A stretch of DNA of 64,000 nucleotides from contig SJRY01000206.1 in assembly GCA_011319805.1 (NCBI GenBank), positions 1-64,000 on the forward strand, given 5' to 3'. Of this stretch, positions 1 to 33,780 are shown in pieces. Source of the DNA: Macrocybe gigantea. Its lineage: Eukaryota > Basidiomycota > Agaricomycetes > Agaricales > Callistosporiaceae. The position numbers and the translations under genes were made by a program. How positions within the stretch are numbered: the first letter of the stretch is position 1; every line of letters begins with the position of its first letter. The notes beneath the pieces were generated by a model. That model was not told where the DNA came from. It did no database searches and saw only the letters and a program-made list of their open reading frames with translations.

Positions 1-26
1 CTAACCTAACCTAACCTAACCTAACC
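1..26. repeat. Telomere repeat, (CCTAA)n / (TTAGG)n
   Basis: The first 25 bases are five perfect copies of CTAAC, followed by a degenerate CTGAC. The C-rich strand reads 5' to 3' inward, as expected at a left chromosome end. The unit is five bases (TTAGG), not the TTAGGG usual in basidiomycetes. The sixth base could be missing because GGG was contracted in the consensus. Confidence 0.85.
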
Positions 27-90
27 TGACAAATTCTGACTAAGATTACCAATTTTTACGTCAGCATTCTGCCTTGTCCCCTTCTTTATA

Positions 91-470
91 GATGACTATC
101 ACTTACGGTCACTTATGGTCAATGACTGTTAATGACAGTGAATGATGGTCAATTACAGTCAGTGACGGTGAATGACGGTAAGTGACAGTAACTTACTATT
201 ATTGACTGTAAGTGACTGTAAGTAGGAGTAAATGACTGTCAATGACTGTTAATGACGGTGAATGACGGTAAGTGACAGTAACTTACCGTTATTGACTGTA
301 AGTGACCGTAAGTAGGAGTAAATGACTGTTATTGACTGTAAGTGACCGTAAGTAGGAGTAAATGACTGTCAATGACTGTTAGTGACGGTGAATGACGGTC
401 AATTACAGTCAGTGACGGTCAATGACGGTTGGTGATGGTGAATGACAGTAACTGACTATAACTATTGGTA
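91..470. repeat. Subtelomeric 10-bp tandem array
   Basis: Thirty-eight consecutive 10-mers stay in exact register from 91 to 470 with consensus near ARTGACNGTN. Higher-order units are visible: 171-239 matches 261-329 at a 90-bp offset, and 291-320 matches 331-360 exactly. The period is close to one helical turn. No coding potential is apparent. Confidence 0.9.
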
Positions 471-23130: not shown

Positions 23131-25379
23131 TCATGTCTCGGCCAAACTTGACCTGAAAGCCGGGTCGATTTTTCCACCACGCGCGGCGGTGCCGATGCCC
23201 GCCATGCTCGTCACCTGCCTCAAATTGCCAAACTCGTCGACGGCCGCGTCGTCGTCGTCTTCTTCCCCATCTTCCCCACCCTCGTCCTCGCGACCATGAT
23301 CCTGATCACGATCACGGTACGACTCGCTCAGATCAGCGGGACGTTCGAGCGGCGGGAGGAGAGGCATCGCGACGCTGTTGGTGCGCTGATGTCCTGCCAC
23401 GAAGGACGCGGCGGACGAAGCATCGCTGAGCGTGCGATGGTGGGTGGAATCGAGCTCTGTCGGGCTCAAATTGGACGACCGAGTCCTGGTCCGCGTCGCC
23501 TCGACGAGCGTATCGTCTCCCCAGTCGACAACGGCCGGCTTTGCGGGATCGTCCCACGTCTCGTCGTGCTTGGCTGCACCCGACTTGGGCTGAGCACACC
23601 AAACTCGTCGTCAACGACACGCGTCTTGACGCTGCTCATCGTCGTTTCCGACGCCTCCTCCTTCATGTACGCTTTGTAGTTTGCATATCGTGCATTGTCG
23701 TCATCTTCATCGTGACTACCCCTGGAAGTGCGCCGCGCAAGAACGTACGCGCCAAGATCGCGCTTGTTGTCGGCGAGCGCGCCAGCAGTGGCACCTGCTA
23801 CAACGGCACCTGCCGCACGGCGATACCTGCGTCTGTAGCAAAACCAGCGGATGGCAAAGAGCGTAAAGCACAGAGCAAAGAACCCAAGCAGGCCGATCAA
23901 GACGATGATGCCGACCGAGAGCTTTCTGCCATCGTCGCCAGCGGGGGGGTTGGAGTTTGACGTCCCGCCGCTCTGGCTGCCCCCGAGGGGCTGATTGAGA
24001 ACGCGCACGCGGCGAAACTCATCGAGCGCGACAGTGGGATCCGTGAGGCCCAACAAGCCAAGCCTGGGCTTGACAGGTGCGCTTTCGCCAGTGTGGGTGG
24101 GAACGTACCGTCGGCGTCGGGGACGGCGTAGGCCATGACGGTGTAGACGTTGCGCATAAAGGGCACGCCGAGGATCATGTCGCCAACCTGGGTTGTTGGG
24201 GAGGCGAGCACGCCGTCAGCAGCCTGAATGAGCCCGATGCAGTAGTCGGCCTTGTTATCTTTTGGGGGCTCGGCGGTGAGGTCGAGCGGATGCAGGGGTA
24301 TTTCGGATCGGTCGTCGAGCGTGATGGTCATGTTGAGCGGGGTCGTGCATGGGACGTAATCTGGGAGAAAGGGCGTCAGTCGCACACGCTCATAAACGAA
24401 AAAAGTTGGGCCTACATTGGCCGTCGGAGGCGGGACTGACGCCGATAGCACCGTAGATGCCGTTGGCGACTTTGGAGGTGGTGAGGATGAGGGGTACGCC
24501 CGAGTCGAGGACGGCGCTTGGAAAGACGGCGCCTGTGTTGGAGCGGCCAACCTGGACGGGACGGTTCTCACCGTTTGCGTAGACGGTGATGGCGCGAACG
24601 CCGAGCTTCCAGAAGAGCGTGCCTGAGCGCTCACTGACGAGCGTCGAGTACTGGATCTTGGACGGGTCGTGCACGAGTGCGGACGGGTGGCGACCGATTC
24701 CGAGGATGGACTGGACGCTGTCTGATCCGGGACGAGACAGTGCAAGGGAGAGAAAGCGAGCAGAGGGCGCGGAGGATACGGGGGTGATGGAGAAGAGGTT
24801 GGAGGCCCAGGCGGCGCCGTCGGGATTGTTGGACGTGACAGGAGGAATGAGCTGGGCGATGATGGAGTTGAGGGGAAGAGCAAGCCCGAGGATGCCGTTG
24901 AATGAAGACGCGAGCGGTTCGTTGGTGACCGAGTCTGCTGCAGCTGCGAGAGAGTGAGCAGGTGAAGGATCGAAGCGCGAACGAACGAACGCACCAAAAG
25001 CCTGGTTTTCGATCGAATAGCCACCGAGTTCGACAGAGTCCCAGAGGATGGGACCGCTGACGTTGCCCTGAAGGTAGTTTATGCTGAAGGACTGACCTGT
25101 GGACGTCGAGCTCGCGGGGTTGTAATTGTGACCGCCGGTCTGCGAGCAGGCAGAAGAGGAGCACGAAGAGGACGCTACCCAGAGATCTGAAGAGCCAGTG
25201 TCGACCTGGAGAGAGAGTTTTTGTGCGCTGGCGCCGAAGCGCATCTCGATGGTGTAGGCGATGTCATAGACGCCGGTGCCGACGACCTGAAGGGGTAGCA
25301 CGATACCATCCTGTGCGCCGTCGCCCTCGTCGCGGGGAACGGCGCGGGCCTTGCCCTTATAGTCGATCGTGCGGGGCAT
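23131..25379 (-). CDS. Membrane-anchored pepsin-type aspartic peptidase (A1)
   Basis: Exon 1 (25379-24416) carries the first catalytic motif VDTGSSDLWVAS and the second LDSGVPLILT. Exon 2 begins at 24360 after a clean GTAGGC...CCCAG intron. The tail has a transmembrane helix (VGIIVLIGLLGFFALCF) followed by a basic stop-transfer and a long acidic cytosolic region ending at 23131. That is the layout of fungal plasma-membrane aspartic peptidases. No classical signal peptide begins the frame, which opens MPRTIDYKGKARAV; the true start may lie upstream. Frame breaks: one base appears missing near 24065 (or a short atypical intron) and one at 23585/23586 inside the tail. Part of exon 1 is duplicated at 20633-21037. 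Confidence 0.8.
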
Positions 25380-27552: not shown

Positions 27553-28398
27553 CTACTTGCATGGCGGGTGTGCCACTTTGCTCGACGCCGTCTTGAACAG
27601 CTTCACCTCCGCGTTCCTACGCCGCGTCAGACCCGCCAGCACCTTGGCTCCCGCGTGATTGAACTTGGGCATCTCTTGCCCCGCCACCGTGTTCGGGTTC
27701 TCCCCCCCGTTCAGCCTCTTGAGCATCGTCGAAGACTTGAACGCGCCGCATCCGAGATTGAACGTGAACGACGCCAGCGCGCCAAACTGGTTGTCGTTCA
27801 GAACCACCTTGTCGCTCACCGCGTCCGCGACGCATTTCGTGAACGACTTGAGGTCCGTCTGCAGCAGAGACGCCGCGTTGGCCTCGCTCAGCGGAAACTT
27901 GAACGGCACCTCCGCGCAGTTCTTTTGCTTGCACAGATGCCCGAACCCGACCGTCGGCAGGCCTATCGGGTCCGGAGCGGGGCTCTTGACGAACCCTTCG
28001 AACGACTTTATCAGGTTCACCGTCGCCGCGTTCACGTTCGGGTTGGCGGAGCTGCTGCATTTCGCCGTGGACTTGGCTGGCGGTGCCGCTGCCTTGCTGG
28101 ATTTCGCCGGTGGCGTGCTGGCTTTGGTCGTTTTTGCGGGAGCGGTGGGCGCTTTCGTGGATGGTGTAGCCGGTGGCGCCTCGGCGGGCGTCGGCGCGGC
28201 GCGTGAATCAACCTCGCGAGCAAAAAAGTCGCCGTCCTGTCCGGCAGGAACGCGACGCAAGCAGAGTCCTGGCCTTTACGTATAAGATTTAGCATAGGGT
28301 TAGGGATGAAACGACGTACCCGACTCGTTGCATGGCTCCGCGATCGGAGCGGCCAGCGCGAGCGTGGCGGTCAGAAAGGCAATGGAGAGGAGCTTCAT
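27553..28398 (-). CDS. Secreted GH24 (T4-type) lysozyme with Thr/Pro/Ala-rich linker
   Basis: Exon 1 (28398-28320) encodes a signal peptide (MKLLSIAFLTATLALAAP). Exon 2 (28268-27553) begins after a CCAG acceptor and keeps frame. A low-complexity Thr/Pro/Ala/Lys linker (about 50 residues with TKA and PAK repeats) precedes the lysozyme domain. Catalytic spacing Glu-9-Asp-6-Thr (SFEGF, PDP, TVGFGH) is identical to that of the T4-lysozyme triad. Expected reaction: cleavage of peptidoglycan MurNAc-GlcNAc bonds outside the cell. The context suggests antibacterial or nutritional use. A paralogue lies at 29881-30443. The family is of bacterial/phage type, so ancient transfer is plausible. Confidence 0.85.
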
Positions 28399-29880: not shown

Positions 29881-30443
29881 ATGGGTAGTGCGTCGCGCTT
29901 TTTCTTGCCACTATGGTGGCCGAACGCTAAACGCCTGCTTCAGACGCAGAGTCGGCTCCGCCTCCATCTCAACCTCCTAGCGTCAACGACGCCACAATAA
30001 ACTATATCAAAGACATTGAGAAATTCGTGGCAGAGCCCAAGCCGGACCCCGTCGGATATCCAACAGTCGGCTACGGTCACAAATGCCAGCAGCCCAAGTG
30101 CGCCGAGGTTCCGTATTCCTTCCCGCTCACAAGAGAGACCGCAGAAGCGCTCCTTCATGACGATCTTCGTCGGTATGCTTCCTGCGTATCAGACTCGGTC
30201 TCTCCGTCAGTCTCCCTCAACGACAATCAACGAGGAGCTTTGACTTCGTTCACATACAATGTTGGATGTGGGGCATTGAAATCGTCCACCATGCTCAGGC
30301 GCATCAACGCGGGCGAGGATCCCAACACCGTCGCCGCTGAAGAGATGCCGAGGTTCCATTGGGCAGGCGGCAAGGTCTCGAACGGACTTACTCGTCGCCG
30401 CGCCGAGGAGGTCGAACTGTTCCAAAGCCCGTGCGATGACTGA
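29881..30443 (+). CDS. GH24 (T4-type) lysozyme, apparently without a signal peptide
   Basis: Exon 2 (29944-30443) encodes the complete lysozyme domain with the same Glu-9-Asp-6-Thr spacing (DIEKF, PDP, TVGYGH). It is clearly related to the neighbour at 27.5 kb (shared LNDNQ.GAL.SFT.N and MPRF/MPKF blocks). The nearest start is ATG at 29881 with only four coding bases before a GTAGTG donor, joining in phase to GACGCAGAG. This start gives a cytosolic form. An upstream exon with a signal peptide was not found. Expected activity: peptidoglycan hydrolysis. Confidence 0.8.
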
Positions 30444-30691: not shown

Positions 30692-31063
30692 TCATACCTG
30701 CCCATCCGAATAGTGACTAAAAGCCCAGGCTCATAACTAGGAGCACTTACCCAGTACGTATTAGGTCCGTTATCGTATGCTTGAGCGTCCGCATTGACCT
30801 CGCGGCTCACCTAGCACGTAGTTTGAGCCCGATATATCATAACGAGATGTTCAAAATGCCCACCTCTTCACGGACCCAATAAACGCCACCACTGCCATTG
30901 GCATAGGCGACATCATGGTTAACCTCGCCCCGGCTCTAAGGCACGACCACTAAACAGTTATTCATGTCAATGAATGCCAGTGAACTCTTACATCTACCGC
31001 AATTGGCACCGCTTTCGCAAAGATGACAAGTGCGCTGGCTACGAAAGCGATAAAGAGCTTCAT
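30692..31063 (-). CDS. Small secreted two-repeat precursor, candidate RiPP precursor peptide
   Basis: Exons are 31063-30992, 30935-30864, 30810-30751 and 30697-30692, all joined in phase 0 by GT-AG introns of 53-56 bp. They give 69 residues. Exon 1 is a signal peptide (MKLFIAFVASALVIFAKA). Exons 2 and 3 are imperfect repeats: SRGEVNHDV then AYANGSGGVYWV, and SREVNADAQ then AYDNGPNTYW. The tiny last exon adds Val and stop, so the second repeat also ends YWV. Monobasic Arg sites flank the repeats (SR before each, VREE after the first); no KR site is seen. The gene is divergent from a DUF3328/UstYa-like gene. By analogy with UstA-type precursors, the Tyr/Trp-rich parts would be the modified cores. 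The exon model is consistent but not proven. Confidence 0.6.
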
Positions 31064-31752
31064 GGAAAGACTGTAGGTGATAGGCAATGAGAGAATGATA
31101 TTTCTACGTGCTCGACCTGCACTTGCAAAGTCATGCATTTGGTATCAATCTAAGTAGTTGGTGGCTGCCTCATGACTTGCAATCTAACTATAGGGAGCTA
31201 ACACCCGGCAAAATAGGCTGATTAGAATGCACGAATCGCAACTCCTTCGACACTGTCATTCGTCTATCAGAATCATCGCCCCTAGCCATTACAGCGCTCG
31301 CTATCATACAATCAACTGACCCCGGGATGTTGCTCTCCCTGCCGAGATAGCGTCGAGCTTTGAGTAACTTCTCATTTATGAGATGCAAAGCCTTGCATGG
31401 CGCAGATGTTCGCTGTGTTCCAATTCCGCCGGTGTTCGGCGTATATGTGTCGCTCTCTCGCTAATTAATGACATATGACAGACGGGGCGTTTTAAAGCCT
31501 ATTCCGACGTCGTCGTGGGGCTCAACACATGGTTCACTGACCCCACCCTTACCCGCAACATCCAGACCTGTCGAGACGTACTCCGCGAGGGTGTCATCTG
31601 AGCGCACCTACGGCGAAGCGGCTGAAGATGCCTTATGACTGACAATTTACTACAGGGTCAGAAGGACAGCCCTTTTGCCTTTTCCGCCGCCGTTTGAAAA
31701 GCGCAACTTTGACTCAAGGGATCCTTACTTCTTCTATTGTCCTGGCGTTTAC
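31064..31752. promoter_or_regulatory. Divergent promoter of precursor and DUF3328 genes
   Basis: The 689 bp between the two ATGs must carry both promoters. Such head-to-head pairing usually gives co-expression. I see no long open frame and no motif that I can assign to a regulator. Confidence 0.45.
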
Positions 31753-32788
31753 ATGGGCATCGAATCCTCCGAACGCTTGCCACTCGTTGTAGACTCGCCC
31801 CTCATAGAGGAGCAGCCATTGCCGACCGTCAATGGCTATCGCCAGAGGAGGCCTTGGCGCGTTGTAACGAGGCGAGAGACGCTACTGATTTTGGTCATTG
31901 TTCTGCAAGCGCTTGTATTGGGGATTGTTCTGTTCCACAAGCATCAAGAGCCTGGCTCAACCTGTCATTGCCCACAAAACGACTACCCTCTCCTTTACTG
32001 TACGAGCTCTCCATCTTTCGTGACTTCCTCATGTCCAATTCCTCCTGGTAGCGCCGGCACAATCGATACTAGAGTACGAGGTGAAGTCTTTCACTGCGGG
32101 AAGAGAGCACAAGACGATGTATCAAGGTCTCTCTGAGGAAACAGATCGTGCCTGGGGAGAGCTTTACAATCGTCAGTGTTAATTTGCTTGATGAGCTTCC
32201 GCCAAGGCCTTGACGTGCGTTATTCAAGACACAATCATGAAAATCCCTAGAAACGAAGCGGCCCTTCTGCCCAACAAGACGTATCCCATCAAAGACGAAC
32301 CGGGTTATTATCTTGCCGGCCTCGATGTTTTTCACCAACTGCACTGCCTGGCACGTCTTTGATTCTACTTCATGGAATTTCTGAGCCGCCCCTTGACTGG
32401 ATCACTTGCATGAATATTCTGCAGAACAACGTCCGGCGGGCTCTTCATCGTGATCATTACGCGAACGACACAGATCTGGACGAAGAACACGTATCGCATT
32501 GTGTTGACACCATCCGACAATCCTTGATGTAAGCACTCCGGTTATGATTGTTCAGGAGAACAAACTGAGGAGAGCGTCATATAAATCAGGTGCAACGCTG
32601 ATATTTCTATCAACGTGTGGCAGTGGAGCAACGAGCTTTCTGCCGTCGTTGGGTACAGCACCCAGGCACACACCTGCCGGAACTTTGAAAAGCTGAAGGA
32701 TTGGGCCCGATCAAGACGCGTGCACAAGTGGATAGATACGCGGTTGTTTGTGGAAGATGACTTGGCGGATCCGCCGATTATCAGTTAA
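31753..32788 (+). CDS. DUF3328 / UstYa-like oxidase
   Basis: Exons are 31753-31999, 32052-32171, 32229-32350, 32425-32528 and 32590-32788, giving 263 residues. An N-terminal membrane helix (LLILVIVLQALVLGIVLF) precedes the DUF3328 region. That region has YSPAQSILEYEVKSF, ETDRAWGELY and the two hallmark copper-type motifs HQLHC and HVSHC, followed by DTIRQSLMCNADIS. UstYa proteins install oxidative macrocycles in dikaritin RiPPs (ustiloxin, phomopsin and asperipin classes) and are also found in non-RiPP pathways. The third intron is GC-AG (CTG/GCACGT...TGCAG); reading through it would hit a stop. The start at 31753 gives the usual short cytosolic N-terminus. It is paired divergently with the two-repeat secreted precursor. 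Confidence 0.88.
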
Positions 32789-33031: not shown

Positions 33032-33780
33032 ATGAAATATGCATTTCCGGTCTCGTCGCTACTTCTTTCATTGATAGGTAGGCGCTCTACTGTAACGGCG
33101 TTTGCACAACATGAATTTTGCCGCCAGGATGCGTCGGAGCCGATACGACCGTCACACTTCTTGCGATAGTCCCAACTGAACAACTGGGTGTCCCAGCACC
33201 ATCCGAGACGTTCAAGGCGATAGGCGTTGGATCTGACGGCGCGACGACATATGACAATATCGAGGTTGTGAGCGAATACCTTGTCAAGCAGCTGAACCCG
33301 CCCTCGATCTTTTCGGGCGCGAGCTTGTCTTTGAGCCTGACGACGATCCCGCCTTCGACCGTAACCGAGCCGCCCATCACTCTGCATGGTGAGTGTCAGC
33401 ACCGCGTCCCAGGCCGTTAATGAGATATGTACGCGTCGTATACAGGAACCCTCGTGGCCGACGCGTCGCATTACGTTTACTCCCTGATTCCAGATCCCAC
33501 CGCGTCGCTCGGTCCGCCCGCACAGGTGATCAGCTGTGACTTGAACGGATCTGGGGGAGGGTCGTGCGTCAGACGTGTCTGGTCAACGGATTTTGAAGAT
33601 GGCATTCTGAAAACGAGTACTTCGACATACAGCGGGGTGCGGACACCTGTGTATACGCTGGTGGCACAAGACGCCAAAGGTAATGGTCTGGTCAGAAACG
33701 AAGCTCACGGTCCAGTGTTGGCAAGCCTCGTAATTGTCGCAACCGGTCTCATGCTTGGGGGGATTTTTGGCAGCTTCTGA
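33032..33780 (+). CDS. Secreted, probably GPI-anchored, protein of unknown function
   Basis: Exons 33032-33077, 33128-33388 and 33446-33780 join in frame. The product starts with a signal peptide (MKYAFPVSSLLLSLIG), has a beta-rich Thr/Ser-rich middle (SLSLSLTTIPPSTVTEPP), one short cysteine-bearing stretch, and ends in a hydrophobic tail (PVLASLVIVATGLMLGGIFG). The tail fits a GPI-attachment signal or a membrane anchor. It follows the DUF3328 gene on the same strand by about 240 bp. I do not recognise the family; cell-surface location is inferred. Confidence 0.7.

What the first reader, a model, noticed from the sequence alone, without database searches (positions are those of the whole stretch)
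30692..32788. Candidate dikaritin-type RiPP locus: two-repeat secreted precursor divergent from a DUF3328/UstYa-like gene
Seen: a 69-residue signal-peptide protein with two imperfect repeats ending in AYANGSGGVYWV and AYDNGPNTYWV, head to head with a 263-residue membrane-anchored protein holding HQLHC and HVSHC. Known: UstYa (DUF3328) enzymes cyclise repeat-derived Tyr-containing cores of secreted precursors in ustiloxin, phomopsin and asperipin biosynthesis. Inference: this pair makes a macrocyclic peptide from the Y..NG....YW cores. The core sequence is not one I know, and the lack of KR sites suggests processing at single Arg or by other proteases.
Basis: partly seen in the sequence, partly recalled or inferred. 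Interest (0 to 1): 0.92.

Follow-up and report, generated by a model that had tools for sequence, protein, structure and literature searches.

The report
Duplicated mushroom peptide-precursor and UstYa cassette
A mushroom genome carries, at two separate places, the same small set of genes: a secreted protein built of repeated short peptides, back to back with an oxidase of the family that rings such peptides, which suggests a mushroom-made modified peptide whose precursor lacks the usual cutting sites.

Summary
In detail: a spliced 69-residue two-repeat secreted-type protein (31063-30692, minus) and a 263-residue UstYa protein (31753-32788, plus; PF11807, 167.6 bits; HQLHC, HVSHC). The decisive evidence is new. 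Searching the 41 Mb home genome with the precursor finds one other locus (contig C292, with a near-identical copy on C203), head to head with the only other UstYa gene found. That paralogue has 93 residues and three repeats, GEVNxDLP[YF]SNG[ED]GGR[YW]WVR, one per exon. A third gene downstream of UstYa (33032-33780; hydrophobic at both ends, no Pfam family) was likewise found only at these loci; no other shared gene was detected nearby, so the unit is a three-gene cassette. Coding constraint on the precursor is supported between paralogues and between C292 and C203. The best named UstYa relatives are Agaricales. Neither precursor has a dibasic Kex2 site, so each fails a defining feature of dikaritins and Kex2-processed repeat proteins, and the published survey rule would miss them. 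Best reading: a dikaritin-like modified-peptide system acting on Y..NG....[YW]W cores, released at single Arg or by other proteases. Expression, cyclisation, product and role are inferred, not shown.

The parts
30692..31063 (-). Precursor gene, 4 exons (31063-30992, 30935-30864, 30810-30751, 30697-30692), 69 aa, hydrophobic signal-like start
   Evidence: splicing; hydropathy, no dibasic site; paralogue
30864..30935 (-). Exon 2 = repeat 1, SRGEVNHDVAYANGSGGVYWVREE
30751..30810 (-). Exon 3 = repeat 2, VSREVNADAQAYDNGPNTYW (V and stop come from exon 4 at 30697-30692)
31064..31752 (.). 689-base divergent intergenic region between the two start codons (649 bases at C292)
31753..32788 (+). UstYa/DUF3328 gene, 5 exons, 263 aa, HQLHC (158) and HVSHC (185); intron 3 is GC-AG where the C292 copy has GT-AG
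33032..33780 (+). Third cassette gene, exons 33032-33077, 33128-33388, 33446-33780, 213 aa, hydrophobic start and end, no Pfam family

Best explanation
A three-gene cassette of an Agaricales mushroom that makes a ribosomally encoded, oxidatively modified peptide. The precursor enters the secretory pathway. The membrane-anchored UstYa enzyme, a copper-type oxidase facing the lumen, acts on the repeated Y-x-N-G-(x)n-[YW]-W core, most likely joining aromatic side chains across the NG turn, with the conserved EVNxD stretch as recognition sequence. Mature peptides are cut out at single Arg (after YWVR, before GEVN) or by other proteases rather than at dibasic Kex2 sites. The third gene may be a surface protein that retains or handles the product. 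Shown: genes, repeats, exon structure, intact enzyme motifs, recurrence of the same three genes at a second locus, coding constraint on the precursor. Inferred: expression, secretion, modification, crosslink, cleavage, role of the third gene, biological role.
For: Precursor search hits only the second UstYa locus and its copy besides itself (reversed control 0 matches). Same head-to-head layout with 689 and 649 bases between starts. Paralogue with the same exon-per-repeat plan and 49% identity. UstYa copies 73% identical, PF11807 at 167.6 and 163.6 bits against a cut-off of 25, 20 of 20 invariant and 20 of 20 near-invariant family columns kept in both. Third gene found only at the same loci. 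Precursor mismatches at codon positions 1/2/3: 15/11/35 over 47 codons; C292 against C203: 1 synonymous change in 282 coding bases, 8 substitutions plus 2 indels in 162 intron bases, p=0.0017. Asperipin-2a is described as needing one UstY homologue only, AprY (PMC6514808 passages).
Against: No transcript, peptide or biochemical evidence. No homologous precursor found in the protein collection, though that search needs shared 5-residue words and short multi-exon genes are often unannotated. No dibasic Kex2 site. No tyrosinase, P450, transporter or S41 peptidase among the 20 window and 10 C292 ORFs scanned with Pfam (not every ORF was scanned). DUF3328 enzymes also hydroxylate and chlorinate, so a crosslink does not follow from the family (passages). 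The C292/C203 coding-intron contrast seen for the precursor is not seen for UstYa (5 in 807 coding, 2 in 214 intron) or gene 3 (2 in 615, 0 in 153).
Confidence: 0.78

Rival explanations
1. The precursor yields linear secreted signalling or surface-active peptides, and UstYa adds only a small change such as hydroxylation, or acts on something else.
For: Peptides from agaric repeat proteins detected so far were described as linear and minimally modified (PMC9769878 abstract). DUF3328 enzymes are reported to hydroxylate and halogenate as well as cyclise (PMC12435403).
Against: Precursor and UstYa occur together at both loci; aromatic Y..NG....[YW]W residues are kept or exchanged only for other aromatics in 4 of 5 repeats, the exception being the shifted window repeat 2.
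Confidence: 0.17
2. The small gene is a chance splice product and not a gene.
For: It is short, has four exons, no database homologue and no transcript evidence; its two repeats alone beat 20000 shuffles only narrowly (46 against a best of 45).
Against: Paralogue with the same exon plan and 49% identity beside the second UstYa gene, third-position excess, C292/C203 constraint.
Confidence: 0.02
3. The shared layout is only the relic of a segmental duplication, with no working link between the three genes.
For: The two UstYa copies group together (90/84) in a tree with many weak forks, so the cassette may have been copied as one piece.
Against: Synonymous sites are saturated in all three genes (pS 0.77-0.92), yet the three genes stayed together while no other gene is shared between the 64 kb window and 49 kb of C292 at the sensitivity used.
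Confidence: 0.1

Closest known systems
Dikaritins (ustiloxin, phomopsin, asperipin-2a, victorin)
   Same: Secreted-type repeat precursor next to a double-HxxHC UstYa gene; Tyr in most cores; a single UstY suffices for asperipin-2a (PMC6514808 passages)
   Different: No dibasic Kex2 sites, only 2-3 repeats, one repeat per exon, cores longer and ending YW/WW-V, agaric not ascomycete host, extra unknown third gene
Kex2-processed repeat proteins (KEPs) of Basidiomycota, including the 103 of 1680 with a DUF3328 gene among the 15 closest genes (PMC7329392 passages)
   Same: Signal-type repeat precursor; predicted pairs with DUF3328 genes in Basidiomycota are already in print, one type in Galerina, Psilocybe and Coprinellus
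   Different: The survey rule asks for 3 or more repeats between KR, KK, RK or RR, which neither precursor here meets. The survey's supplementary sequences were not seen
DUF3328 dicopper enzymes (CctR, PMC12435403)
   Same: Transmembrane helix then helical domain; HxxHC pair on two neighbouring helices in the model of the Gymnopilus relative (pLDDT 83.1), as described for CctR
   Different: CctR hydroxylates a non-ribosomal cyclic peptide; no solved relative by sequence and 0 of 135 fold matches at E<=0.001

Membership tests
UstYa family (PF11807, DUF3328) | Profile match over the curated cut-off | tested here: met
   167.6 bits against 25 over residues 30-240
UstYa family (PF11807, DUF3328) | Two HxxHC motifs | tested here: met
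   HQLHC 158, HVSHC 185; 115 of the 120 listed relatives have two
UstYa family (PF11807, DUF3328) | Binuclear copper centre and dioxygen chemistry | not testable with these tools
   Described for CctR (PMC12435403)
Dikaritin RiPP | N-terminal signal peptide on the precursor | tested here: inconclusive
   Hydrophobic start in both precursors; hydropathy only, no signal-peptide predictor was run
Dikaritin RiPP | Repeated core peptides in the precursor | tested here: met
   2 repeats in the window, 3 at C292
Dikaritin RiPP | Cores separated by dibasic Kex2 sites | tested here: not met
   0 dibasic sites in both precursors
Dikaritin RiPP | UstYa/DUF3328 gene beside the precursor gene | tested here: met
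   Divergent neighbours at both loci
Dikaritin RiPP | Cyclised, modified product | not testable with these tools
   Needs mass spectrometry
Kex2-processed repeat protein (KEP) | At least 3 repeats of 8 aa or more between KR, KK, RK or RR | tested here: not met
   No dibasic site in either precursor; rule read in PMC7329392

The most novel reading that the evidence does not exclude
A new class of agaric ribosomal peptides: Kex2-site-free, one-core-per-exon precursors whose Tyr/Trp cores are crosslinked by a single dicopper UstYa enzyme and handled by a dedicated surface protein, present across Agaricales but passed over by dibasic-site searches and by gene finders.
Probability: 0.42. Interest if true: 0.87.

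Novelty: new variant of a known kind. Interest (0 to 1): 0.72.

Why it matters
The survey read found a DUF3328 gene near only 103 of 1680 basidiomycete repeat proteins (6.1%) and suggested that the motif might differ or that cyclisation might hardly occur there (PMC7329392); yet UstYa genes are numerous in mushrooms, for example 16 in Pleurotus (PMC8893723). This cassette offers a testable reason: mushroom UstYa substrates may lack dibasic sites and lie in tiny multi-exon genes. It gives a concrete signature (GEVNxD then NG then [YW]W, beside UstYa) and two natural precursor variants for finding substrates of orphan mushroom UstYa enzymes.

Tried and rejected
Protein-collection searches with the precursor alone (no candidate) and with a two-row alignment of both precursors (71 candidates, none at E<=10) found nothing; not taken as proof of absence. 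Scans of viral and prokaryote contigs for UstYa relatives with context found none, as expected for a fungal family; no collection of fungal genomes was on hand, so conservation of the cassette in other mushrooms is untested. Fold search of the UstYa model gave 135 matches, none at E<=0.001. A wider shared gene cluster was looked for and not found: window ORFs with a family (aspartyl protease, AKAP7-like, Ras, two phage-type lysozymes, glutamine synthetase domain, an RNA methyltransferase fragment; 20 chosen ORFs) differ from those beside C292 (RRM, SNF2, FAD-binding, rhamnosidase; 10 chosen ORFs), and ORF comparison at E<=1e-4 matched only the three cassette genes and antisense frames over them. 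The nearby aspartyl protease (24393-25379, minus) as processing enzyme was considered; no ORF like it was found at the second locus, and it was not pursued. A nearer acceptor for precursor intron 1 (ending 30950) puts the repeat out of frame; rejected by reading the sequence. A lyciumin-like Gly-Trp crosslink was considered (recalled, no call); the Gly at that spacing is absent from window repeat 2. The literature search for 'UstYa' from 2022 (40 of 262 listed) returned mostly unrelated Russian author-name matches.

Full report
WHAT IS THERE. The precursor reads: signal-like segment (exon 1), SRGEVNHDVAYANGSGGVYWVREE (exon 2), VSREVNADAQAYDNGPNTYW (exon 3), V-stop (exon 4). The UstYa protein matches PF11807 at 167.6 bits (cut-off 25). 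Of 192 relatives at E<=0.001, 120 were listed; the first 22 of these are 50-85% identical, and all the named ones among those 22 are agarics (Gymnopilus, Phlegmacium, Cyathus, Crucibulum, Guyanagaster, Armillaria, Coprinopsis, Galerina, Flammula; their place in Agaricales is recalled). So the host is taken to be an agaric; no tool names it. A tree of 33 of the 120 listed relatives plus the two home copies puts the two copies together (90/84), next to Gymnopilus, Galerina and two environmental rows (93/94); 9 of 32 inner branches are well supported.

THE SECOND LOCUS. The precursor as query against the home genome (41.2 Mb, 333 contigs) gave 9 matches at E<=10: 3 are itself; the other 6 lie at C292:248451-248773 (minus) and C203:21401-21721 (plus). 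Both places lie beside the only other UstYa gene found there, head to head (family search). The reversed precursor gave none. C203 is a 27.6 kb contig that aligns to C292 at 97.6-98.6%, probably the other haplotype; for the window locus no second copy was found by DNA search. The paralogous precursor has 93 residues and three repeats (GEVNVDLPYSNGEGGRYWVR, GEVNADLPFSNGDGGRWWVR, GEVNVDLPYSNGEGGRYWVR), one per exon, with a GC-AG first intron. The precursors share 49% identity, the UstYa pair 73%. The 93-residue protein as query found no further locus. These searches score only the best first-look candidates, so counts are lower bounds.

THE THIRD GENE. ORF comparison of the window with 49 kb of C292 showed, besides precursor and UstYa, a gene just downstream of UstYa (33032-33780; 213 aa). 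It has no Pfam family at E<=1, is hydrophobic at both ends, and was found only at these loci. C292 has a copy with an open spliced frame (251559-252326) and an upstream fragmentary-looking one.

IS IT CODING? Between paralogues the precursor's 47 compared codons differ at positions 1/2/3 by 15/11/35. Only exon 1 plus repeat 1 was compared; window repeat 2 and C292 repeats 2 and 3 were left out because they do not align without gaps. pS is 0.92, 0.81 and 0.77 and pN 0.27, 0.15 and 0.37 for precursor, UstYa and gene 3; synonymous sites are saturated. Between C292 and C203 the precursor has 1 synonymous change in 282 coding bases against 8 substitutions and 2 indels in 162 intron bases (p=0.0017). 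The other two genes do not show that contrast: UstYa 5 in 807 coding (1 amino-acid change) against 2 in 214 intron bases; gene 3 2 in 615 (1 amino-acid change) against 0 in 153; intergenic 38 in 2567.

HOW IT MAY WORK. The relative from Gymnopilus junonius (P0002), modelled with 48 of the 120 relatives in the alignment (pLDDT 83.1, pTM 0.68), has a helix at 38-59 and its two HxxHC motifs on helices 152-166 and 180-196 (motif columns), the layout described for the dicopper enzyme CctR (PMC12435403, first of three parts read). The window protein itself was not modelled. Both home copies keep 20 of 20 invariant and 20 of 20 near-invariant columns. I infer a lumenal oxidase acting on the aromatic residues on both sides of the NG turn. 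Invariant positions across the five repeats are E, V, N, D, W and V, fitting a recognition part (EVNxD) and a reactive end (YWV or WWV). In window repeat 2 the Y and NG are shifted by one, which is against a strictly fixed ring size. Both precursors lack dibasic sites; single Arg before GEVN and after YWV are the likeliest cuts. Cleavage after single Arg was reported for some agaric repeat proteins expressed in yeast (PMC9769878 passage).

AGAINST WHAT IS KNOWN. Reviews seen in passages put characterised dikaritins in ascomycetes (PMC9233826; PMC7099791). Computed pairs of basidiomycete repeat proteins with a DUF3328 gene are already in print (103 of 1680; PMC7329392 passages), so pairing as such is not new. 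That survey required three or more repeats between dibasic sites, which neither precursor here meets. The agaric repeat-protein study (PMC9769878: abstract, outline, passages) has no UstY or DUF3328 in its main text. The listings of searches (listed 16 of 16, 20 of 1791, 20 of 59, 40 of 262, 15 of 247, 17 of 18, 12 of 624 and 8 of 8 papers) show no title or abstract that reports a UstYa-linked precursor without dibasic sites from a mushroom. The library is open-licence papers only and supplements were not open to me, so such a report may exist elsewhere.

VERDICT. Real, present twice, with the precursor under coding constraint, and probably a peptide-modifying cassette (0.78). It works like a dikaritin system but fails its dibasic-site feature; whether the product is a macrocycle is open. 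Score 0.72.

Noticed in passing
window 1-27; C4:252535-252661 (end of contig); C153 from base 4: Chromosome ends seem to carry (TTAGG)n: 183 overlapping matches (77 forward, 106 reverse) of a four-copy (CCTAA) pattern in the genome and none of four-copy (CCCTAA); at C4 the array runs to the last base of the contig. Two agaric genome papers give TTAGGG (PMC11433599, PMC10211490 passages), so a five-base telomere repeat in an agaric looks unusual. It also puts the cassette about 31 kb from a chromosome end.
   Followed up: partly
window 117-463: Degenerate subtelomeric tandem array with 10-, 30-, 40- and 90-base periods (AATGAC/AGTGAC units) beside the telomere repeat.
   Followed up: no
window 27556-28260 (-) and 30027-30440 (+): Two phage-type lysozyme (PF00959) genes within 2.5 kb, one of them the direct neighbour of the precursor gene.
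   Followed up: no
L030 (C292:250700-251300): A fragmentary-looking extra copy of the third cassette gene lies between UstYa and the copy with an open frame.
   Followed up: no
C203 (27.6 kb) against C292: Whole contig aligns to C292 at 97.6-98.6%, probably the other haplotype; no second copy of the window locus was found, so the window cassette may be collapsed in assembly or present in one nucleus only.
   Followed up: partly
window intron 32351-32424; C292 intron 248822-248771: Two GC-AG introns, one in each cassette; the UstYa one sits where the C292 copy has a GT-AG intron.
   Followed up: no
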